Positions 1,631 through 20,483 of a stretch of DNA of 20,483 nt are shown piece by piece; position 1 is the first letter of the stretch, and each line of letters begins with the position of its first letter. Origin of the DNA: a virus. The notes beneath the pieces are model-generated. The model was not told the DNA's origin. It made no database searches and saw nothing but the letters and a program-made list of their open reading frames with translations. Made by a program: the position numbers and the translations under genes. The stretch is taken from the IMG/VR virus record IMGVR_UViG_3300022939_000192, positions 1 through 20,483 of that record; one strand, 5' to 3'.

Positions 1631-2047
1631 TTAGACGATTCTGGCTTTAATAAAATGTGTTCCTGCTGAAGTTTTTTCGTGCATTATTTCGATTGATAGT
1701 CCACCCTCAACCTTGTGAGAAATACCATCATCGTTCACATCGCCATTTTCGTCTTTTCCAATTCTTCCACCAAACTGTGTCAGTGGCATAGAATACGAAC
1801 CACCGCTCTCTGACAAATCAAAGTTATCAAAAGAAATAGAAAGTCTTCCTAGTTTCTCTCTAAGTTTATTTAGAGCGTGTTCTGCAACTAGGTGTTCAAT
1901 ACCACCCAATGCGCCTAGGAAAGAATTGATTCTTTCGATAGTTTCTGGTTTGGAGAGATCATTAGAAAAGTCAGGCCCACTTGGTTGATGTCCCACATCA
2001 ATGTTTGCATTGTGTGATTCATCAAGATACTTGTTAAAGGTCTTCAT
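1631..2047 (-). CDS. Hypothetical late protein with a capsid-targeting-like N-terminus
   Basis: A protein of 138 residues if translated from the second ATG at 2047, or 140 from the ATG at 2053. I prefer 2047: GAGG sits nine bases upstream of it but only three bases from the first ATG. The shorter form starts MKTFNKYLDES, which closely matches the T4 internal-protein targeting peptide including a Glu-Ser cut-like position at residues 10-11. The remainder has a helical middle and a C-terminal beta-rich part with a Gly/Asp-rich loop (KDENGDVNDDG). I do not recognise the fold. The start lies inside the upstream acidic gene. A packaged head-internal protein is the inferred role. Confidence 0.6.
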   Translation of the reverse strand: MKTFNKYLDESHNANIDVGHQPSGPDFSNDLSKPETIERINSFLGALGGIEHLVAEHALNKLREKLGRLSISFDNFDLSESGGSYSMPLTQFGGRIGKDENGDVNDDGISHKVEGGLSIEIMHEKTSAGTHFIKARIV

Positions 2048-2195
2048 TTTCATCTTCCTCTTCTACAACTTCTTCGATTTCCTCTTCGACAACCTCTTCT
2101 ACAACATTAGGGTTGACTTCTAGGATTTCTTGAAGTGCTTCTGGTTTTTTCTTTTCTGGAATGGGTTGACCATTCGCACCGTATCTAACTGTCAT
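2034..2195 (-). CDS. Small very acidic protein, possible prohead-core-like peptide
   Basis: A 53-residue protein starting MTVRYGANGQPIPEKKKP. The last 23 residues are almost entirely Glu, Val and Asp (E-E-V-V-E-E-E blocks). The start at 2195 is chosen because AAGGAG lies seven bases upstream. A longer reading to 2246 runs back into the preceding structural gene and has no ribosome site. Its stop lies inside the next gene. Size and acidity recall T4 gp67, the small acidic prohead-core protein, but there is no clear sequence match, so this is analogy only. Confidence 0.6.
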   Translation of the reverse strand: MTVRYGANGQPIPEKKKPEALQEILEVNPNVVEEVVEEEIEEVVEEEDENEDL

Positions 2196-6491: not shown

Positions 6492-6759
6492 AGTTGTTTT
6501 CCCATATCTGGATTACCAGATTTCCTTTTCCTTTAATTATTCTGTGATATTCCATTTTAGGAATATTATAAAGTTTTCCTTTTTCAAGTTCTATAGGCAA
6601 TCGGTTATCCATTTGCAATTTCCAACCCTCACCTTGTAACACTGTTACTTCTCTAGTTTGTTTGTCTCTGTGCCAGATTAGTTCTGTTTCATCAACATCA
6701 CTAGAAAATTCTCTTACAATGTATTTATCTTCTACTACTTGTGTATATGGTTTTACCAA
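6484..6759 (-). CDS. Small cupin-like protein (TTG start)
   Basis: A 91-residue, beta-rich protein with a cupin-like pattern: W29-H-R-D, E-V-T-V-L-x-G-E-G-W, L-P-x-x-L-x-x-G, then I-P-K-M-E-Y-H-R-I around residues 67-75. The two His-containing motifs are where cupins bind metal, but the first has only one clear ligand set, so catalytic activity is doubtful. From memory, close relatives occur in marine T4-like phages. No ATG is available near the N-terminus. A TTG at 6759 has GGAGG nine bases upstream and is the likely start. It overlaps the gene before (stop at 6753) and the gene after by eight bases. The ligand is unknown. Confidence 0.65.
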   Translation of the reverse strand: MVKPYTQVVEDKYIVREFSSDVDETELIWHRDKQTREVTVLQGEGWKLQMDNRLPIELEKGKLYNIPKMEYHRIIKGKGNLVIQIWENNYD

Positions 6760-9305
6760 TAGAAGTTGCCTCCACCAGACAAACCAAGTTGTTTTGCATA
6801 ACGAGGTAGGTTACAGCTCCAGTAACCCGCTTTTGTTTTGTCTTTCTGTTGGTCGCAATTGTGACGAGCAGCAAAATTCTTTCTCGCCTCTGGGTCATCC
6901 AACTTGACTTTCAAACCAGTTGTGTCACCAAATGTGACTTTCTTAACATTGCCAGTTGATGGGTCTTTAACATACACATAGTATTTCTTTGGCCCACCCA
7001 CTTTTGGTTTGTTAAGTTCTACATCCTTTTCTTCAAACATCATAGGGCAATCTAGTGGAACTGGTTGTCCTTGATAGTAGTCCATCTTTCCAATATCGCC
7101 TTCCATAAGTTCCTTATCAAAACCTACTGGTTTATAAACACCAATATTATAGGCATCTCTCTTCTCTTGGAAAAACTCAAAATACTTTTCTGAACCAACA
7201 CGATATTGATTCGATTCAATTAGACTTGAAGTCTCACACTCATTACAACAGTTTGGTGTTCCACAATTCAAATGTTCCTTAAATGAAAATCTTTCAAACT
7301 GTGCAACACTTCCAGTATCAATAATTTCAATATCACCCTTCTTTAGAAGTGCTTCAAATTCTTTCTTAGAGAATACTCTTTCTCCATCTGGGCCCTTTAC
7401 GACATATACTTGTTGTTTGGTTACTCCCACTGAGGAATACTCTTTCCCAAACATTTTAATTTTTTGTCCATCCCCAAGTTGGTATTTCTTTTTACCGTGT
7501 TTGACAATCATAGTCAAACCTTCTGATACTGTATACTTTTCTACTTCCTGTCCTGGCGTCATTCCTTGAAGCGCCTCCCTTCTTGCATCTGTTCCAATTT
7601 CACGAGGGTCTTCTTCTTCACTTACACCCTTATGTTTCTTCCACAAATCAGCATCGGCAGTTGTTCTTGTTTTACCACCACTGATAAATGAATTTACTCT
7701 TGCGTGTCCCCATTGTTCTGGGGTTGTGCCTGGGCGATGTCCACCCTTCCATGCGGCAACACCACGATTGTAAACTTGTTTTAGAATAGATACAGAGATA
7801 CCAGATGCTTCTGCCTTTTTAGCAAGAGAAGTATCTGCGGCACCTTCATGTAGATTATCTATAAACTCATAAAAAGAACTTTCTCCCATTGCAAGATTTT
7901 GCAACTGTCCAATCATGTTTGTCAAGATTGGTTGTGGGATTGCAGAAATAACTGCCATCTGTTGTGGAGTTAGTCCTTTAACTTTCTTTAGAATTTTATC
8001 AATTACACCTTCTTTATACAAGTCTGGGAACTTTTTCTTCATCTTGTTTGTATACTGAGATGGTTTAGTCTTTGCAGTTGCATCGCCTGGAGCGGGTTTG
8101 TATGCAGACTTATCATCATCGTCTTTCTCTGCACCCTTCCTAAAGTGAGCATCTCTCTTGTCCTTTGTGGACTTTGCCATCTCATCGCCCTCAGCATCTT
8201 TTGCATAATACTTAGCGGGTTGAGTTCCCTTCTTGTCTTTAATGTCTTTGTCTTGTTTACCTTCAGTTACAGATTCATATTGTGTTTCGTATGCCTTTGC
8301 AAGTTCTCTTGCATCAACACCTCTGAACTGTCTACCGATTTCTCCAGCATAATAAACAATGTCATGTTTTAGTTTACCGTTGTTCTCTTTTTTCTTTCTG
8401 TCAATAACAGATTTAAGAACATCTAATGCCTTTGCATAAATGTTTCTATGAGTAGACTTTGCAGCAATATGTTTAATGAGTTGTCCCATAGTTTGTTCTT
8501 GTAATTCATACAACCACTTCTTATGAGTTGTTCCATCTTCTTCTGCAAAGGTTAGATAATTAGTTCCTCTGCGAATAATTTTACCAGAGACACCAGAGTA
8601 ACTATCAGTAACTATTTCGCCAATAGTTAGTATCTCTCCACGAACATACATATCTCTAAAAATATCTTCTTCTGTGATTACTTCTGTTTTAGGAACAAAA
8701 GACTCACGAATACCCATATGTTTTCTTACATCTGCGAATAATTTGTCACCATCAGAGAACCCTCTTGGTAGTCCAAGTTTGAACTGGTCGAAATCATTTG
8801 CAGATGCAGCAGCCCTCATCTTTGATGCAGACATTCCAGTAACACCTTCTGCATCTGGGTCACGCTCACCAGCAGAGACTACTTCAATGTTGTCAAAACC
8901 ATAATATCCGTGTCTTGCCTCTACACCGTTATATTTGTTCAATAGAGAATTAAACTCATCAACTCTGTCAGAACCAACAACCATTACAATTGCTTTATGT
9001 CCTTTGTTGTATAGTGAAACTGCAATCTCAAATACATTTCTTGCCTTATCTACAACAATGTTCCTTGCGTGTTTTGGGAACATCTTTTTCATGTATGCAA
9101 CCTTCTTCACATATGGAAGAGGGTCTTTCTTTGCGTTTTCAGAGTGAGATGCGAAAATATAATAAGGAGCGCCAGGATTGCTCTTCGCAACTGCACTAAC
9201 CTTATCTAATAGTTTTTCGTGCCCTGTGGTTGGTGGATTAAATCTACCAAAGGTAAACACACAAGTGTCACCACGAGCCTCTCTAATCTCTCTAAAACTT
9301 TTCAT
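6753..9305 (-). CDS. Multidomain late protein: NMN-adenylyltransferase-like N-terminus plus several phage modules
   Basis: An 850-residue protein. Residues 11-195 are a nucleotidyltransferase of the NMNAT/cytidylyltransferase type: FGRFNPPTTGH (19-29, the HxGH-type ATP motif) and MSASKMR (158-164, the ISSTxxR-type motif). Such domains transfer AMP to NMN or a related phosphate substrate. Residues 205-268 form a small beta module (GKIIRRGTNYL...KKWL). Residues 490-560 match, from memory, the DUF5824 type (AAWKGGHRPGTTPEQWGHAR). Residues 678-690 hold a His/Cys cluster. Residues 773-836 match the DUF5872 type (ARHNC...YWSCNLPRY). The first residues, MKSFREIREA, resemble a capsid-targeting peptide, and L/I/V-x-E-G/A sites punctuate the linkers (9, 348, 487, 595, 735). 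Start and upstream stop overlap as ATGA. I infer a packaged polyprotein. Confidence 0.75.
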   Translation of the reverse strand: MKSFREIREARGDTCVFTFGRFNPPTTGHEKLLDKVSAVAKSNPGAPYYIFASHSENAKKDPLPYVKKVAYMKKMFPKHARNIVVDKARNVFEIAVSLYNKGHKAIVMVVGSDRVDEFNSLLNKYNGVEARHGYYGFDNIEVVSAGERDPDAEGVTGMSASKMRAAASANDFDQFKLGLPRGFSDGDKLFADVRKHMGIRESFVPKTEVITEEDIFRDMYVRGEILTIGEIVTDSYSGVSGKIIRRGTNYLTFAEEDGTTHKKWLYELQEQTMGQLIKHIAAKSTHRNIYAKALDVLKSVIDRKKKENNGKLKHDIVYYAGEIGRQFRGVDARELAKAYETQYESVTEGKQDKDIKDKKGTQPAKYYAKDAEGDEMAKSTKDKRDAHFRKGAEKDDDDKSAYKPAPGDATAKTKPSQYTNKMKKKFPDLYKEGVIDKILKKVKGLTPQQMAVISAIPQPILTNMIGQLQNLAMGESSFYEFIDNLHEGAADTSLAKKAEASGISVSILKQVYNRGVAAWKGGHRPGTTPEQWGHARVNSFISGGKTRTTADADLWKKHKGVSEEEDPREIGTDARREALQGMTPGQEVEKYTVSEGLTMIVKHGKKKYQLGDGQKIKMFGKEYSSVGVTKQQVYVVKGPDGERVFSKKEFEALLKKGDIEIIDTGSVAQFERFSFKEHLNCGTPNCCNECETSSLIESNQYRVGSEKYFEFFQEKRDAYNIGVYKPVGFDKELMEGDIGKMDYYQGQPVPLDCPMMFEEKDVELNKPKVGGPKKYYVYVKDPSTGNVKKVTFGDTTGLKVKLDDPEARKNFAARHNCDQQKDKTKAGYWSCNLPRYAKQLGLSGGGNFYW
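6769..6773 (-). promoter_or_regulatory. Strong ribosome binding site deciding a TTG start
   Basis: The minus strand reads GGAGG nine bases before TTG at 6759, within the last codons of the 850-residue gene. It supports TTG as the start of the cupin-like gene, which has no nearby ATG. Confidence 0.55.
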
Positions 9306-10546
9306 TTATCCCATGCCTTTATTGCAGTAAAGTTATTGTAACTAAATTCCATTCTATCGACTAATTTAACTGCACCACCAGTAGTTCTGTCAATTGCAAC
9401 ATAACCCTCTGGGTTTACAACTTTGAACCCATTGTCAGTTTTAATAAAAGTTCCAATGCTTCTAACAGTATTTAGTTTCTTTACAATACCCATCTTTGCA
9501 TCCACAATATAGTTCTGGAATGTCAATATATTAGTTAAATTACCGATATGTTTTTTTAGTTCACGAACAGTTTCTTTTTTATTGTTTTCAGCAGTCTCTT
9601 TTGTTGCTGGTGTTTTTAGTTTATCAATTCGTTTTTGATATACACCTTCAACCCACGCAATGTATCCTTGTGCGTGTTGTTTAGGATTAGTAATCTTTTG
9701 TCCAGCACGAACCTTTGAGTTATTGTATGTTTTCAAAGACGCACCAGATAAGTCACCAGTAAAACTATTTTGAATATTCAAGAAACTGGTCAACAGTGAA
9801 GAGTTGATAGTTCTGAATGTTGAACCAGCACCAGACAATGATGCAGTTACAGCATCTGTTTCTGCCTGTGTCATAGTTGCAGAACCAGAAGTATCTTTAT
9901 AAGTTGCATCATCCATCCATACAGAAGATGATCTACCCAACTTAGAAATGTTTGCACCAAACGATGCCTTCATGTCTTGTAGTGTCTTACCAGAATATGT
10001 GGTGTGCCACACCACACCAATCTTTGCATTTTTAATCTGTCTACCCAAATCAGAATTTACATCTGCGGCGTAAACGATTGTGTTTGGTTGAAATGTGTAA
10101 TAAGATTTACCATCAATCTTTTCTGTGGAAACCGTATCACTAGTGAACATCAAGTCTCCTTGTAGAACACCAGTGATTCCTAGTTTAGAAAATTCTGAAA
10201 GTGCAACTTTGAACTTAGTTGCCAAGTCGCCAGAAACATCCGAATCTACTTCAGATGCAGTCTTGTATAATTTTGGATTTTTGTTAAATACAGATTTCTT
10301 TGCAACAAAGAACTTACCGTCTTCTGGGTCGATACCAGCAAAGATTGCAGGCGCACCATCCCACTTAACGGTCATATTGATAGAGGAACGAGATGCACCT
10401 GCTAACATATCACGCAATGACCGTATAAAGTTGATAGAGGCACGCCCTCCATCAACTCCATAGTTGAGAATTTCGTCTTCGATATGTTCTAGGTGTAGAT
10501 TTTTCCCACCTTTATCTTCAGTGAGAAATCCATTGAATTTTAACAT
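9302..10546 (-). CDS. Ligase-like covalent nucleotidyltransferase candidate (DUF6267-like phage protein)
   Basis: A 414-residue protein resembling, from memory, a marine T4-like phage family labelled DUF6267 with no known function. It carries what look like the motifs of ATP-dependent DNA/RNA ligases and capping enzymes in order: motif I KWDGAP (61-66, Lys61 as possible adenylated residue), motif III LQGDLMF (128-134), a IIIa-like strand at 149-160, motif IV PEGYVAI (379-385) and motif V AVKLVDR (392-398). The wide gap between IIIa and IV holds a helical insert (~240-370). The start MLKFNGFLTED resembles a capsid-targeting peptide. It is the first gene after the 90-base promoter gap and is coupled (ATGA) to the NMNAT-like gene. 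Ligase chemistry is inference. Confidence 0.75.
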   Translation of the reverse strand: MLKFNGFLTEDKGGKNLHLEHIEDEILNYGVDGGRASINFIRSLRDMLAGASRSSINMTVKWDGAPAIFAGIDPEDGKFFVAKKSVFNKNPKLYKTASEVDSDVSGDLATKFKVALSEFSKLGITGVLQGDLMFTSDTVSTEKIDGKSYYTFQPNTIVYAADVNSDLGRQIKNAKIGVVWHTTYSGKTLQDMKASFGANISKLGRSSSVWMDDATYKDTSGSATMTQAETDAVTASLSGAGSTFRTINSSLLTSFLNIQNSFTGDLSGASLKTYNNSKVRAGQKITNPKQHAQGYIAWVEGVYQKRIDKLKTPATKETAENNKKETVRELKKHIGNLTNILTFQNYIVDAKMGIVKKLNTVRSIGTFIKTDNGFKVVNPEGYVAIDRTTGGAVKLVDRMEFSYNNFTAIKAWDK

Positions 10547-15605: not shown

Positions 15606-16891
15606 GTAAAGAACTCCTCTAATGTATTCACTTTAACATCTCTGAACAAGTCAACTGAAGTATCTTTACCAAATACCCAAACATTTTCCATGTAGAGTTT
15701 ATTCATAAACTCATCCATTTTGTCCTTGTCAAAGTTACCTTCTTCATCCTTGAAAACCGAAGCACCTTGTGGGCGCTGCATAATCCTCATTCCAATCTGT
15801 CCTAAGAAATTAGGACGAAGCATATCTACCAACTCATCGCCTGAACGGTATCGTTTACCATGCACTTTAGGGTCAAGGATGTTTACCATCAAGATACCAT
15901 TCTCACTCAATGAGTTGAAACTGTTTTGTGCAACTGGAAGATAGAAGTCATCTCTCCACTTGTCGTATTCGTTGAACTTTGCCCATGACTGTAGTTCCTC
16001 TTTTTCACCGCCCTCATTATATCTTTCTGTAGAGAAGTAAGGCGGTGAAGTAAATGCACAATCAACATCTTTAATTCTATCCCAAGGCAAATCTTCTGCA
16101 CCACAATTAAAAATATGAACAGACTTTTTACCTTTAGACTTATCATAGATGCCATCATAGAACGCAATCATTTTATGATAACGCTCAAATGTGTTTGGAT
16201 TGGGGTCGCAACCAATGTAGTGTGTTGCATTAGAAGCATAAAAACCAGTAAGTCTATCACCCCAACCCATAGAGGTATCTAATACGGTTTTCGCACGAGT
16301 CATGTCATAAATTGTTTTCGCAACAATAGGTTTGAACTGTGTTGCAATGTAAGTTCCTAGACGAAATGCCATTGTATAAGTTTTAGGTGTAAGTTCTTTT
16401 GCATCATTTACACCTCTCCAAATAGGGCCGAAAGCACCCCAAATATTATCACCATCTTCCCATCTAGTAACTGGTGCTTTGAAACCATACGAACCACAAC
16501 GCATACGCAAGTCATTCATAAATGAGTCTGCACAATAGTTGAAGTTGGATGGGCCTTCGATAAACCCTAGTCCAAATTCACTATATGGATATTTGTAGTC
16601 ATCGTATTTTTCAACAACCTCTTTTGTAGGAATATTGATATAATCAGTGAAAGGCGCTTTCTCCAACTTACGAAAGTTTTCGATTACTTTTGATTCTGAA
16701 AATTGTTTGAGTGGATATGGCGGTTTCTCTCTTGTAATATATTCTGCAAGAGTAGAACGAAATAATTCTTTACCATACTTTTCTGTTGTCGAAACAAACA
16801 AAGAACGATTCATCACTGGCAATCCAGTGCTGTCTGCACAACTTCTTAGTAACTCATATAGTTCTTGGTTTATTTCTGTTTTATCACTCAT
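15602..16891 (-). CDS. DNA-methyltransferase-like protein with TSPPY motif
   Basis: A 429-residue protein. Residues 202-232 carry a Rossmann-type SAM motif in modified form (VLDTSMGWGDRL, then YIGCDPNP), and residues 281-285 are TSPPY, the catalytic motif IV of amino-methyltransferases that modify N4 of cytosine or N6 of adenine. The motif I to motif IV order fits a gamma- or beta-type MTase with a long (200-residue) N-terminal extension of unknown role. Members of this type occur in marine T4-like phages. It could mark phage DNA against host nucleases. The start overlaps the polymerase stop as ATGA, with AGAGGA nine bases upstream. RNA or protein methylation cannot be excluded. Confidence 0.75.
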   Translation of the reverse strand: MSDKTEINQELYELLRSCADSTGLPVMNRSLFVSTTEKYGKELFRSTLAEYITREKPPYPLKQFSESKVIENFRKLEKAPFTDYINIPTKEVVEKYDDYKYPYSEFGLGFIEGPSNFNYCADSFMNDLRMRCGSYGFKAPVTRWEDGDNIWGAFGPIWRGVNDAKELTPKTYTMAFRLGTYIATQFKPIVAKTIYDMTRAKTVLDTSMGWGDRLTGFYASNATHYIGCDPNPNTFERYHKMIAFYDGIYDKSKGKKSVHIFNCGAEDLPWDRIKDVDCAFTSPPYFSTERYNEGGEKEELQSWAKFNEYDKWRDDFYLPVAQNSFNSLSENGILMVNILDPKVHGKRYRSGDELVDMLRPNFLGQIGMRIMQRPQGASVFKDEEGNFDKDKMDEFMNKLYMENVWVFGKDTSVDLFRDVKVNTLEEFFT

Positions 16892-19404
16892 ACGAAAAAA
16901 TCCTCTAGTGACATTTGTGTTCCATAACTTCTGTCAATTGTCCATCCAATCTGGTTCATAATAAAAGTCAAAGGTTCAACAAACGCCTTCTCAAACTGTG
17001 TATCATAGTCTAGATGTGAATGTATGTCAAGTTCTTTTGGCAACTTTGTCATAAACGAAATCACATTAGACTGCATCCGATTAGGTGTTCTCAAGTTGAG
17101 AAACTTAATCTTCTCACCCTCTTGTATAAGAGGATACTTATTAGTCAACTTCTGCTGACGAACAAAATGGTTGTAGAGTATCACACCTTTAATATGCATT
17201 GGTGTTCCCTTTTTGAAGATGTTAGAACTGTCACTCCAATTAGAGATTCCGTTCACAGAACGAGGAAACGCAATTTCTTCTGGAGGCAGTTTCATAAACT
17301 CTTCACGAAACTCTTGAATAAAGTTGTTCACATCTTTCTCTGTGCCAGACATTATAACTTTTAGAGCATCTTTAATCTTCTCACGACATGGTGCAGGCGT
17401 AGATGACTTAACTGCTTCAATACCCATAATCTTGAGTGATGGTTCTTTATAACGAACCCCCTCAACATCCCATGCATTTAGAATGTATCGTTTCTTTGCA
17501 GTCCAAATACCCTTGTCTGCAATCACCTCACGCTTCATCTGCATCTTCTGTGCATATGCATTTACATACGAAGCAAGGCCTTGATAACTCTTATCAATAA
17601 ACGGTTCAATCTTATCTTGAGCGACTCGGTCAAGGAAGTCCACGGCCCGCCCACGATACGAATCTTCCGACTCATTATCTCTCTTTTTAAGCACACTGTC
17701 AACCAATCGCTCAAAAGTAATATATACTGAATCCGTATCGCTCGCAATGACATAATCCACTCCTTCAGTTTTCAGTAGTTTGTTCAGATAGATGTTTAAG
17801 GATTTCTCAATCCACCGAATAGCAAGTTGTCCAGAAGTTGTAATACCTTCTGCAATCTTGAGTTCATAGTATCTAAACCATTCGTTACCAATCGCACCAT
17901 AGGCAGAGTTCAATGAAATCTTTCTTGCCATCTGAATGTTATTAAAACGAGACACATCTTTTAGATACTTGGGGTCTTTGGTATCTTCGTATTTCTGTTT
18001 TGCGTCCAACATCTTGCGTTTGTAAATGGTTCTGTCATCATACATACTCTGCATCATCTCAGGCAAGAACCCTTGTTTTTCTTTTGAAAACATCGCACCG
18101 TTTGGTGTGCAAGTTACATTGTCTGGATTAGAAAGTTTCTTTGCTGCAAGCATATAATCAACATCGACATTTGGATCATACTGTGGTAGTAGTGTCTCTG
18201 GCGAGATGTTGTATTGCATAATCAAGTGAGGATAGAGTGAGTTCAAGTCAAAAGACAGAACCCACTTATGTTGTCCAACTTGTGGTTCTTTCACATATGC
18301 ACCGGCATACTTTTCACTCTTACTTTCACTTCTTTTCTTTTGAGGAATAACGACCTTCTTTGATAGAAGATGATTGTAGATAAGAACATCCCAATACTTA
18401 ACAGAAGTAAATGCATCAGTGATATTTACCTTTGCATCATATGCCATAGTCAAATGCAAGTCGATGAGTTTCATCTTATCGTCTAGTTTGTCAACGAGTT
18501 CCACATCCTGTATATTATAGTCTAGGAATGATTGATAGTCGTTTGTATACCACTCACGAAAAGTCTCATATGGATTTTCGTCTTTGCGTTCGCCTAGTTC
18601 AACATGAGCAATGTGGTCTAGTCGATAAGATTCTTGTCTTACATAAGTGTGTTTACGATACAGCAGAAGATAATCCAAGTCCTCGACACCCATAATGTCA
18701 TAGACTTGTTCTTTCTTTCCATAACCACTGGTAACAGTTCTTGCATTAACTACACCCCAAGGCGATAGGCGTTTCATTGCATCCTCACCCATAACCGATT
18801 TGATACGGTTGCAGATATAAGGAATATCGAATCGTTCAGTGTTCCAACCAGTAATAATATCTGGATGGTCACTTTCCCACCATGCAAGAAATTGTGCTAG
18901 GAGTTCACGCTCAGTCGCACACTTAATATATTGCACATCTTCTCTATCATTGTGATATTCGTGCAACCCCCAAACCTTAATGCGTCCAGTATCATGATTT
19001 TTGATAGTGATTGCAAGCATAGGTTCAAGTGCCTGATCGGCATTTGGGAAACCGTTCTCACACTCCACCTCAATATCAATTGTGACAATACGCATTTGCG
19101 AACTATCAAACTCGATTTGTCGAGGATACTTTTCTGCGATATAGGTGTAGGGGAATTGTGTCAACCCATAGACAAGATGAGGTTGATTTTCATATTGTGC
19201 AACGAATTCTTTTGCTTCTTTAATTGTGAGAAAACGCATCGGATTGACATTCTTGCCTTCCAATGTTTTCCAACCTGTTTCTTTTTGAACAGGGACATAG
19301 AGGGTTGGTTCGTATTTAACTTTGAAGTTAGAACGAACTCCGTTCTCTACGCCACGAACAAGAAGTTGATTGCCCCATTGGGCAACATGAGTGTAAAATC
19401 GCAT
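16888..19404 (-). CDS. 43: DNA polymerase, family B (T4 gp43 type)
   Basis: An 838-residue replicative polymerase. Proofreading exonuclease motifs are TIDIEVE (Exo I, Asp110/Glu112), GWNTERFDIPY (Exo II, Asp193) and YNIQDVELVD (Exo III, Asp300). Polymerase motifs are SFDLNSLYP (A, Asp386), KISLNSAYG (B, 495-503) and SDTDSVY (C, Asp556/Asp558), with KKRY downstream. The end, SLEDFFV, resembles the clamp-binding C-terminus of T4 gp43 (LDFLFG). It is 60 residues shorter than T4 gp43 and appears intact. A sigma70-like promoter lies immediately upstream, with its -10 only six bases before the ATG, and no clear ribosome site is seen. Confidence 0.96.
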   Translation of the reverse strand: MRFYTHVAQWGNQLLVRGVENGVRSNFKVKYEPTLYVPVQKETGWKTLEGKNVNPMRFLTIKEAKEFVAQYENQPHLVYGLTQFPYTYIAEKYPRQIEFDSSQMRIVTIDIEVECENGFPNADQALEPMLAITIKNHDTGRIKVWGLHEYHNDREDVQYIKCATERELLAQFLAWWESDHPDIITGWNTERFDIPYICNRIKSVMGEDAMKRLSPWGVVNARTVTSGYGKKEQVYDIMGVEDLDYLLLYRKHTYVRQESYRLDHIAHVELGERKDENPYETFREWYTNDYQSFLDYNIQDVELVDKLDDKMKLIDLHLTMAYDAKVNITDAFTSVKYWDVLIYNHLLSKKVVIPQKKRSESKSEKYAGAYVKEPQVGQHKWVLSFDLNSLYPHLIMQYNISPETLLPQYDPNVDVDYMLAAKKLSNPDNVTCTPNGAMFSKEKQGFLPEMMQSMYDDRTIYKRKMLDAKQKYEDTKDPKYLKDVSRFNNIQMARKISLNSAYGAIGNEWFRYYELKIAEGITTSGQLAIRWIEKSLNIYLNKLLKTEGVDYVIASDTDSVYITFERLVDSVLKKRDNESEDSYRGRAVDFLDRVAQDKIEPFIDKSYQGLASYVNAYAQKMQMKREVIADKGIWTAKKRYILNAWDVEGVRYKEPSLKIMGIEAVKSSTPAPCREKIKDALKVIMSGTEKDVNNFIQEFREEFMKLPPEEIAFPRSVNGISNWSDSSNIFKKGTPMHIKGVILYNHFVRQQKLTNKYPLIQEGEKIKFLNLRTPNRMQSNVISFMTKLPKELDIHSHLDYDTQFEKAFVEPLTFIMNQIGWTIDRSYGTQMSLEDFFV

Positions 19405-19410
19405 AATGTA

Positions 19411-19439
19411 AATATACCACCGTTAGGGGTTGTTGTCAA
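19411..19439 (-). promoter_or_regulatory. Sigma70-type promoter of the polymerase gene
   Basis: The minus strand carries TTGACA at 19439-19434, a 17-base spacer, and TATATT at 19416-19411. The -35 overlaps the TGA stop of the previous gene. The -10 ends six bases before the ATG at 19404, so initiation would fall at or next to the start codon. Confidence 0.65.
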
Positions 19440-19660
19440 GAGAAAAGTGTATATTGTTTTTGTTCTTCTTCTGAGAAATGTTGATCTAACATATCAATGA
19501 CATCTTGATATTTAGCAATTTCTAGAACTTCCTTTTCCATCGTTTCAATGATGTCTGGGTGTTCGCCAACACCTACAGGATTGTTTAGATATACAAGAAC
19601 ATTTGCTTTATGTTTTGCAATGTGTCCTTCTGCGTGTTTTCTTAGTGCGTCAAGTAACAT
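19436..19660 (-). CDS. Conserved small helical T4-like phage protein
   Basis: A 74-residue, alpha-helical protein: LLDALRKHAEGHIAKHKANV, then PVGVGEHPDIIETMEKEV. From memory this short family recurs in marine T4-like phages, often near gp43, with no assigned function. The stop overlaps the -35 of the polymerase promoter. AAAGGAAAA lies before the ATG. Seventeen bases separate it from the gene before. No motif allows a function to be named. An accessory of replication or of the virion are both possible. Confidence 0.6.
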   Translation of the reverse strand: MLLDALRKHAEGHIAKHKANVLVYLNNPVGVGEHPDIIETMEKEVLEIAKYQDVIDMLDQHFSEEEQKQYTLFS

Positions 19661-19677: not shown

Positions 19678-20483
19678 TTAACCTTCATCATCATTCTCAT
19701 CACCCCTTTCAATCCAATCCGACAGAGCGAATCTTCTGTTAGGGTTTACTGAGACCTTAAACCGTGTCATTGCATCTCTGTTAATGAGAACAGTTGACAT
19801 GGAATCTTTTGTTGTTAGACCAAATGGAACATCTTTATACAACTTGTTATTGAACTTAACATCTAAATGCACAATTGGTCTTTCATCAATCTTTCCAACA
19901 TGAGCAGGATGGGACATACCCATCAACTTGCTAGTTTGTCCCTTACCATTTTTACTCCACTTAACATTCTTACCTTTGACTTCTAGTTCATCAACAACGA
20001 ACATAGATGCCTTTGTTCCGTTACCAGTGTCAAACTTTGCACGAACAGGGCCGTAACCCTCAATCTCAATGCGTTCAACATATCCTGCTTCGGTAGGGAA
20101 TGTGTGTCTACGGTTTTTAACTGTTGAGATATACTCAATCATTTTGTCCACAATTTCTTTAGGTTTTGCGACACCCTTGTAATCGTTTTCGTCAGACTCT
20201 TCCACAGTGATGTCATACATCGCAAAATTACTTCCAATACCGGCACTACCATTACACTCAAGAATGTAAATGTCACCATTAACCAAAGCATGATCAACAC
20301 CGACAATGTATGCACCAACTGACCTAGCAGCAGAAAGAACTGCTGTCCTTTCTTCTTCAGTAAGTTCATGCGGTTCTGTTGTTGCCCCTCTGTGTCTATT
20401 AGATCTGAAATCTTTTTCTGGACGAATTCTTTTAGTTGATGCAAGTATTTTACCATTCATTACCACCGTTCTTATGTCATAAT
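19678..20483 (-). CDS. RimK-type ATP-grasp ligase fused to a RimB-like aspartyl-protease domain (5' end missing)
   Basis: The frame is open to the window edge. Codons for Y-D-I-R-T precede the GTG at 20466, so the N-terminal part lies outside. The first ~85 visible residues are the end of a RimK-like ATP-grasp domain: DIRTVVMNGKILAS, KDFRSNRHRGA, and VGVDHA...YILECNGSAGIG with the Glu-x-Asn metal ligands. After a linker, residues ~128-255 (counted from 20466) match the RimB-type retropepsin-like domain that accompanies RimK in bacteria: VRAKFDTGNGTKAS (catalytic Asp146) and TVLINRDAM...VSVNPNRRFALS. RimK adds glutamates to the C-terminus of ribosomal protein S6, and RimB trims them. A phage fusion of both is notable. 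The phage target is unknown. Confidence 0.8.
   Translation of the reverse strand, partial: YDIRTVVMNGKILASTKRIRPEKDFRSNRHRGATTEPHELTEEERTAVLSAARSVGAYIVGVDHALVNGDIYILECNGSAGIGSNFAMYDITVEESDENDYKGVAKPKEIVDKMIEYISTVKNRRHTFPTEAGYVERIEIEGYGPVRAKFDTGNGTKASMFVVDELEVKGKNVKWSKNGKGQTSKLMGMSHPAHVGKIDERPIVHLDVKFNNKLYKDVPFGLTTKDSMSTVLINRDAMTRFKVSVNPNRRFALSDWIERGDENDDEG

What the first reader, a model, noticed from the sequence alone, without database searches (positions are those of the whole stretch)
19678..20483. Phage fusion of a RimK-like ligase and a RimB-like protease domain
One reading frame contains the end of a RimK-type ATP-grasp domain (ILECNGSAG) and a retropepsin-like domain with D-T-G (AKFDTGNGTKAS). 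In bacteria these are separate proteins that respectively add and trim glutamates on ribosomal protein S6 and alter translation. A single phage polypeptide with writer and eraser activities would be a compact tool to remodel host ribosomes or tag a phage protein. The N-terminus is outside the window, so completeness is unknown.
Basis: partly seen in the sequence, partly recalled or inferred. Interest (0 to 1): 0.7.

Follow-up and report, generated by a model that had tools for sequence, protein, structure and literature searches.

The report
Phage glutamate-tagging enzyme with packaging signal
A marine virus of bacteria carries one protein that joins an enzyme for adding glutamate tails to proteins with an enzyme that cuts such tails, and its front end carries an address label that probably loads it into the virus particle, so it could be injected and act on the host from the first moment of infection.

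Summary
The window's truncated ORF (19678-20481, minus) is the last 267 residues of a 483-residue protein; near-identical contigs supply the N-terminus. It is a complete RimK-type ATP-grasp ligase fused to a RimB/RloA-type retropepsin-like domain. All RimK catalytic positions checked and the DTG are conserved. The fusion is not new: Monier et al. 2008 reported rimK-DUF785 next to regA in marine T4-like contigs, and fusions exist in cells.

What I found beyond that is the N-terminus. Across three RimK subfamilies occupying the same regA-gp43 slot, the protein starts with F-x-x-[FY]-[ILV]-x-E followed by a variable, disordered linker. This matches the four residues mapped in the T4 capsid-targeting sequence (IPIII, MKTYQEFIAE). 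In cyanophage S-CREM2, whose virion proteome is published, the same strict motif marks exactly three genes, and all three are enzymes detected in virions. A distant homologue of the fusion was detected in YerA41 particles.

Best reading: a virion-packaged, injected glutamate ligase/protease that edits an acidic C-terminus from the start of infection. S6 is the likeliest target but is unproven: the S6-ligase equivalog model is not met. Packaging is inferred, not shown, for this protein.

The parts
19678..20481 (-). 3' part (residues 217-483) of the RimK-RimB fusion gene; the 5' part lies beyond the contig end
20233..20478 (-). [quoted passage not shown]
20293..20295 (-). Catalytic Asp equivalent to E. 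coli RimK D248
   Evidence: alignment
20251..20259 (-). E-x-N metal-binding motif (ECN), equivalent to E. coli RimK E260/N262
19729..20091 (-). RimB/RloA-type retropepsin-like domain
20023..20031 (-). DTG catalytic triplet of the retropepsin-like domain, aligned to the DTG of 9g58, 9g59 and 2pma
19678..19728 (-). Acidic low-confidence C-terminal tail (...ERGDENDDEG)
19436..19660 (-). 74-aa conserved phage protein of unknown function (phrog_1811) between the fusion and the polymerase
16888..19404 (-). gp43-type DNA polymerase B; downstream landmark of the regA-[RimK]-43 slot
9302..10546 (-). 414-aa protein with the same N-terminal motif (MLKFNGFLTED), phrog_455; candidate co-packaged protein
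1631..2047 (-). 138-aa protein with the same N-terminal motif (MKTFNKYLDES); candidate co-packaged protein

Best explanation
The gene encodes a two-domain enzyme of T4-like marine phages: a RimK-family ATP-grasp ligase that adds alpha-linked glutamates to an acidic protein C-terminus, fused to a RimB/RloA-like retropepsin domain that trims poly-glutamate and/or keeps the ligase stimulated. Its first ~11 residues are a T4-type capsid-targeting sequence (F-x-x-[FY]-[ILV]-x-E). I propose that the enzyme is drawn into the prohead core, cut by the gp21-type prohead protease after the motif's Glu, enclosed with the DNA and injected, so that it acts from the start of infection on a host protein, most likely ribosomal protein S6. 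Shown: the architecture, the intact catalytic residues, the fold, and conservation and specificity of the N-terminal motif. Inferred: packaging of this protein, protease cleavage, injection, enzymatic activity and the S6 target.
For: Architecture and catalytic residues. Folds: RimK part matches 7qys (E 6e-19) and 5zk6, a RimK-RpsF complex; C-terminal domain matches 2pma, 9g59, 9g58, Ddi1 and HIV-2 protease. N-terminal motif: present in all 45 non-redundant fusion sequences with F5 and E11 at 100% and [FY]8 at 100%, followed by a variable linker; 70/76, 35/35 and 31/37 loci of the three families match strictly. Specificity: of 1439 distinct ORFs of 120 aa or more, the motif marks 143 RimK-family ORFs and few others, against 5 of 14132 internal start codons. 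T4 IPIII/IPII start MKTYQEFIAEA, and targeting maps to residues 4 and 7, processing to 8 and 10 (PMC9026906). External validation: in S-CREM2 the strict motif marks 3 of 350 ORFs and all three are virion-detected enzymes (SAM hydrolase, APH-like kinase, cytidylyltransferase) (PMC10665884); in S-SCSM1 the virion-detected NMNAT carries it. Peptidase_S77 (gp21 type) occurs in contigs of two relatives. YerA41 g112, annotated as a ribosomal protein modification protein and matching the fusion gene by gene order, was found by LC-MS/MS in particles (PMC7354516). RimB binds and stimulates RimK and cleaves poly-Glu tails (PMC11957791). AlphaFold gives residues 1-16 low confidence, as expected of a removable propeptide.
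Against: No virion proteome is known to me for a phage of the window's own family or for Mosig or Melnitz. The YerA41 homologue lacks the strict motif, so its presence in particles does not test the signal, and YerA41 preparations also contained polymerases and other enzymes. The RimK genes have no TATAAATA late promoter within 250 nt (0 of 55), whereas several packaged S-CREM2 enzymes have one at about -29; T4 ipIII and ipII, which are packaged, also lack one. In S-SCSM1 one further gene with the motif (ORF30) was not detected in virions. The S6-specific model PRK10446 scores 98 against a cut-off of 331. The three subfamilies are only about 30% identical, so they may have different substrates.
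Confidence: 0.6

Rival explanations
1. A cytoplasmic regulator made early in infection from the replication/regA operon that glutamylates host S6 or a phage protein; the N-terminal motif is an ordinary helix with no packaging role.
For: The gene sits between regA and gp43 in the early gp45-44-62-regA-43 cluster with no late promoter. RimK acts in the cytoplasm in bacteria (PMC11957791).
Against: The motif is far more conserved than the linker behind it, is shared with unrelated proteins of the same genomes, is absent from E. coli RimK and from the S-RIM8 RimK, and marks virion enzymes in S-CREM2.
Confidence: 0.25
2. The enzyme works inside the prohead or on phage proteins: it tags a head or core protein with glutamate or trims acidic tails during assembly, rather than acting on the host ribosome.
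For: The capsid-targeting-like signal places it in the prohead core; the window also encodes a short protein with a Glu-rich C-terminus (2034-2192, minus).
Against: No substrate is identified and the prohead interior is not known to supply ATP or glutamate; virion enzymes of cyanophages are usually read as injected effectors (PMC10665884).
Confidence: 0.15
3. The retropepsin-like domain is catalytically silent and serves as an allosteric activator or dimerisation module of the ligase (this can hold together with the best explanation).
For: Pseudomonas RimB stimulates RimK ATPase; the Melnitz-type subfamily works without the domain and no separate RimB-like ORF was found in its loci.
Against: DTG is invariant across the fusion alignments, which points to retained catalysis.
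Confidence: 0.25

Closest known systems
Phage rimK-DUF785 genes of GOS marine contigs (Monier et al. 2008, PMC2530865)
   Same: Same domain order (ATP-grasp then C-terminal DUF785/PF05618), same regA neighbour, same T4-like marine phages; almost certainly the same gene family
   Different: That paper predates the RimB protease work, and the passages read here do not describe a capsid-targeting-like N-terminus, a virion link or the protease fold
RimABK system of Pseudomonas (RimK, RimB; PMC11957791)
   Same: The same two enzyme classes: poly-glutamate ligase and retropepsin-like poly-Glu protease, with intact catalytic residues
   Different: Separate proteins there; RimA is not part of this polypeptide; the phage protein fails the S6-ligase equivalog cut-off (98 vs 331 bits) and has an extra N-terminal signal
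T4 internal proteins IPI-IPIII and Alt
   Same: N-terminal motif spacing F/Y-x-x-F-I-x-E; gp21-type protease encoded by relatives; works like a packaged, injected effector
   Different: The mature part is a RimK-RimB enzyme instead of an internal protein or ADP-ribosyltransferase; packaging not demonstrated
Virion-associated enzymes of cyanophage S-CREM2 (SAM hydrolase, APH-like kinase, cytidylyltransferase)
   Same: Carry the same strict N-terminal motif and are detected in virions
   Different: Unrelated catalytic domains
Yersinia phage YerA41 g112 / YerA41_066
   Same: Full-length RimK-RimB fusion; by gene order the product found in phage particles by LC-MS/MS
   Different: About 28-30% identity, different genome context (after ribonucleotide reductase), no strict N-terminal motif

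Membership tests
RimK-family alpha-L-glutamate ligases (TIGR00768) | Score above the curated subfamily cut-off | tested here: met
   L006 protein 144.8 vs 143.4 bits; Mosig 173.8; YerA41-type GN1 168.6
RimK-family alpha-L-glutamate ligases (TIGR00768) | ATP/Mg and substrate-site residues of E. coli RimK conserved | tested here: met
   K100, K141, E178, R203, R211, N213, D248, E260, N262 in all fam1-fam3 rows
Ribosomal protein S6--L-glutamate ligase (PRK10446 equivalog) | Score above the equivalog cut-off | tested here: not met
   98.1 vs 331 bits
Ribosomal protein S6--L-glutamate ligase (PRK10446 equivalog) | Adds glutamate to S6 | not testable with these tools
   needs enzymology or mass spectrometry
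RimB/RloA retropepsin-like peptidases (PF05618) | Retropepsin-like fold | tested here: met
   Model mf85efbba0e65 vs 2pma E 3.5e-7, 9g59 4.4e-6, HIV-2 protease 8.2e-4; model pLDDT 74
RimB/RloA retropepsin-like peptidases (PF05618) | DTG catalytic motif aligned with family DTG | tested here: met
   Invariant in A3 and A4; aligned to 9g58/9g59/2pma
RimB/RloA retropepsin-like peptidases (PF05618) | Pfam PF05618 score above the gathering cut-off | tested here: not met
   Window protein 17.3 vs 27 bits, L006 15.5; the assignment rests on profile and fold comparisons, so it is filed as RimB-like, not as a member of PF05618
T4-type capsid-targeted internal proteins | N-terminal CTS with aromatic residues at 4 and 7, hydrophobic at 8, Glu at 10 | tested here: met
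   some members carry it shifted by 1-2 residues
T4-type capsid-targeted internal proteins | gp21-type prohead protease encoded by the same phages | tested here: met
   Peptidase_S77 in contigs of L023 and L012 relatives; not in the 20-kb window itself
T4-type capsid-targeted internal proteins | Protein present and processed in virions | not testable with these tools
   No proteome for this family; YerA41 homologue detected in particles (PMC7354516)

The most novel reading that the evidence does not exclude
A widespread group of marine T4-like phages injects, with their DNA, a pre-made poly-glutamate writer/eraser that resets host ribosomes (S6) before any phage gene is expressed. The regA-43 locus is a dedicated slot for such injected RimK-type effectors, swapped between phages whose flanking core genes stay 80-87% identical, while the capsid-targeting tag is kept.
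Probability: 0.35. Interest if true: 0.85.

Novelty: new variant of a known kind. Interest (0 to 1): 0.62.

Why it matters
Injected effectors of marine phages are almost unknown. A short sequence motif that already marks virion enzymes in two proteome-characterised cyanophages would let part of the packaged proteome be predicted from sequence alone in abundant ocean viruses. If the RimK-RimB protein is one of these, it would be a ribosome-modifying enzyme delivered at time zero, and it makes the role of S6 glutamylation in phage infection directly testable in existing isolates (Mosig on Pelagibacter, Melnitz on Methylophilales).

Tried and rejected
(1) Fusion as a new discovery: rejected, reported in 2008. 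(2) Cellular origin of the close relative in a 'Woesearchaeota' MAG (L280): rejected as a phage contig, since the gene lies directly behind a RegA gene (PF01818 E 5.7e-46) and carries the same N-terminal motif. (3) Salmonella phage hit H8: an unannotated 2.3-kb contig, not informative. (4) Separate RimB gene beside RimK-only members: none found in the RimK-only loci with a domain HMM. (5) Late promoter in front of RimK: none; T4 ipII/ipIII have none either, so this does not decide. (6) The motif hit in clamp-loader ORFs is a TTG inside the gene, a false start. (7) The strict scan of Mosig gave 0 hits because its motif begins six residues in. (8) Papers: no held paper was found that combines RimK with capsid targeting in phages; only open-access text is held.

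Full report
Observation. The window is a 20,483-base virus contig. On its minus strand an ORF of 267 codons (19678-20481) runs off the end. Its first 82 residues match the C-terminal half of the RimK ATP-grasp domain (PF08443, 2.2e-15) and its end weakly matches PF05618, the DUF785/'Zn_protease' family. A search of IMG/VR gave 37 relatives, four of them 100% identical over the stretch, and these contain the missing N-terminus: a 483-residue protein starting at a TTG codon. A family-wide scan found at least 587 related stretches in viral contigs. The one close match among about 85,000 cellular genomes (L280) is a contig with RegA and the same N-terminal motif, that is, a misbinned phage fragment.

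Domains. The full protein passes the RimK-family model TIGR00768 (144.8 vs 143.4 bits) but not the S6-ligase equivalog PRK10446 (98 vs 331). Positions equivalent to E. coli RimK K100, K141, E178, R203, R211, N213, D248, E260 and N262 are conserved in all members of the three families compared. An AlphaFold model of the full protein (pLDDT 78) is closest to RimK structures, including RimK bound to RpsF. The C-terminal domain, modelled alone (pLDDT 74), is closest to 2pma (DUF785), RloA2 and RloA, then Ddi1 and HIV-2 protease. A profile of this domain aligns its DTG with theirs. The Pfam gathering score is not reached by the window protein, so the assignment rests on profile and fold. Bacterial RimB is a dimeric aspartic endoprotease of poly-Glu tails that also stimulates RimK (PMC11957791).

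Context. Gene order is gp45-gp44-gp62-regA-[RimK-RimB]-74-aa protein-gp43, the T4 replication cluster with the fusion inserted between regA and 43. The closest sequenced isolate is Methylophilales phage Melnitz: gp45, gp44, gp62, regA and gp43 are 81-87% identical, but the protein in the slot is a RimK without the protease domain and only 28% identical. No separate RimB-like ORF was found near such RimK-only genes. In Pelagibacter phage Mosig the slot holds a fusion about 30% identical. On a tree of the ligase domain, window-type fusions, Mosig-type fusions and RimK-only proteins form three supported groups, the last joining Mosig and YerA41 rather than the window type. The simplest reading is one fusion with a later loss of the protease domain and replacement of the gene in place; long branches make the deeper order uncertain.

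N-terminus. Nearly every full-length member of the three groups begins with F-x-x-[FY]-[ILV]-x-E or a close variant, e.g. MEKFADFITEA, MKNFQSFITEE, MAVSFSNFVEEL, MQVQPFKNYLEEA, LTQKFSQFITEE. In 45 non-redundant fusions F5 and E11 are invariant and position 8 is always F or Y, while the following residues 14-20 are variable and gapped, and the model is of low confidence there. This matches the T4 capsid-targeting sequence: IPIII and IPII start MKTYQEFIAEA; mutational work assigns targeting to residues 4 and 7 and processing to 8 and 10 (PMC9026906). E. coli RimK and the S-RIM8 RimK lack the extension. Among 1439 distinct ORFs of 120 aa or more from related contigs, the motif at a start marks 143 RimK-family ORFs, a 414-aa family, a 140-aa family, one singleton and a clamp-loader false start; the background at internal start codons is 5 in 14,132.

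Validation. I tested the motif on two Kyanoviridae with published virion proteomes. In S-CREM2 the strict motif marks 3 of 350 ORFs: SAM hydrolase (MKDFDSFLEE), APH-like kinase (VKRFDAFLTE) and cytidylyltransferase (MKNFSSFLTE). All three are listed in the virion proteome as non-structural proteins (chance that three random genes all fall among the 52 virion proteins of 219: 0.013). Virion proteins ORF12 (Cas9-like, FASFMAE), ORF13 (LHSFLTE) and ORF136 (FSMFFSE) carry near matches. In S-SCSM1 the virion-detected NMNAT carries it (MKSFLQFLKEA); one 106-aa gene with the motif was not detected. None of the passages I read in these papers names the signal. The gp21-type protease needed for processing is encoded on contigs of two relatives. 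Independently, YerA41 g112 'ribosomal protein modification protein', the fusion gene by gene order, was detected in particles, though it lacks the strict motif.

Limits. No late promoter precedes the RimK genes (0 of 55), unlike several packaged S-CREM2 enzymes, but T4 ipIII and ipII also lack one. Packaging, cleavage, injection, catalysis and the S6 target are not shown for this protein. I put about 0.95 on the two-domain enzyme identity, 0.65-0.7 on capsid packaging and 0.4-0.45 on S6 as the main target (judgement, not computed).

Noticed in passing
window 9302-10546 (-) and 6753-9305 (-): 414-aa protein starting MLKFNGFLTED with a TATAAATA 47 nt upstream, next to an 850-aa cytidylyltransferase-like protein; one PHROG (455) spans both. 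Cytidylyltransferase/NMNAT homologues are repeatedly found in cyanophage virions, so this pair is a second candidate packaged module.
   Followed up: partly
window 1631-2047 (-): 138-aa protein without PHROG match starting MKTFNKYLDES, almost the T4 IPIII signal; homologues with MKTFKKYIKEA and MKTFNKYIAEK starts in two related contigs.
   Followed up: partly
window 2034-2192 (-): Small protein ending in a Glu-rich tail (EEVVEEEIEEVVEEEDENEDL), a conceivable phage substrate for a glutamate ligase or poly-Glu protease.
   Followed up: no
L296 7704-10313 (-), S-CREM2 ORF12: A Cas9/Csn1-like nuclease detected in phage virions carries a near-CTS (FASFMAEA) about 18 residues in and shares an operon-like cluster with the packaged kinase; the cluster's first gene (ORF15) has a TATAAATA at -30.
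   Followed up: partly
L280: Contig in a 'Woesearchaeota' MAG (CALCXY010000050.1) holds DnaJ-like, RegA and a CTS-bearing RimK-RimB fusion: a misbinned T4-like phage fragment.
   Followed up: yes
L065 vs L305/L003 (Melnitz): The regA-43 slot is swapped between a RimK-RimB fusion and a RimK-only protein (28% identity) although flanking core genes are 80-87% identical.
   Followed up: partly
L301 24558-24992, S-SCSM1 ORF70: RegA, the gene upstream of the RimK slot, is annotated as a virion protein in S-SCSM1.
   Followed up: no
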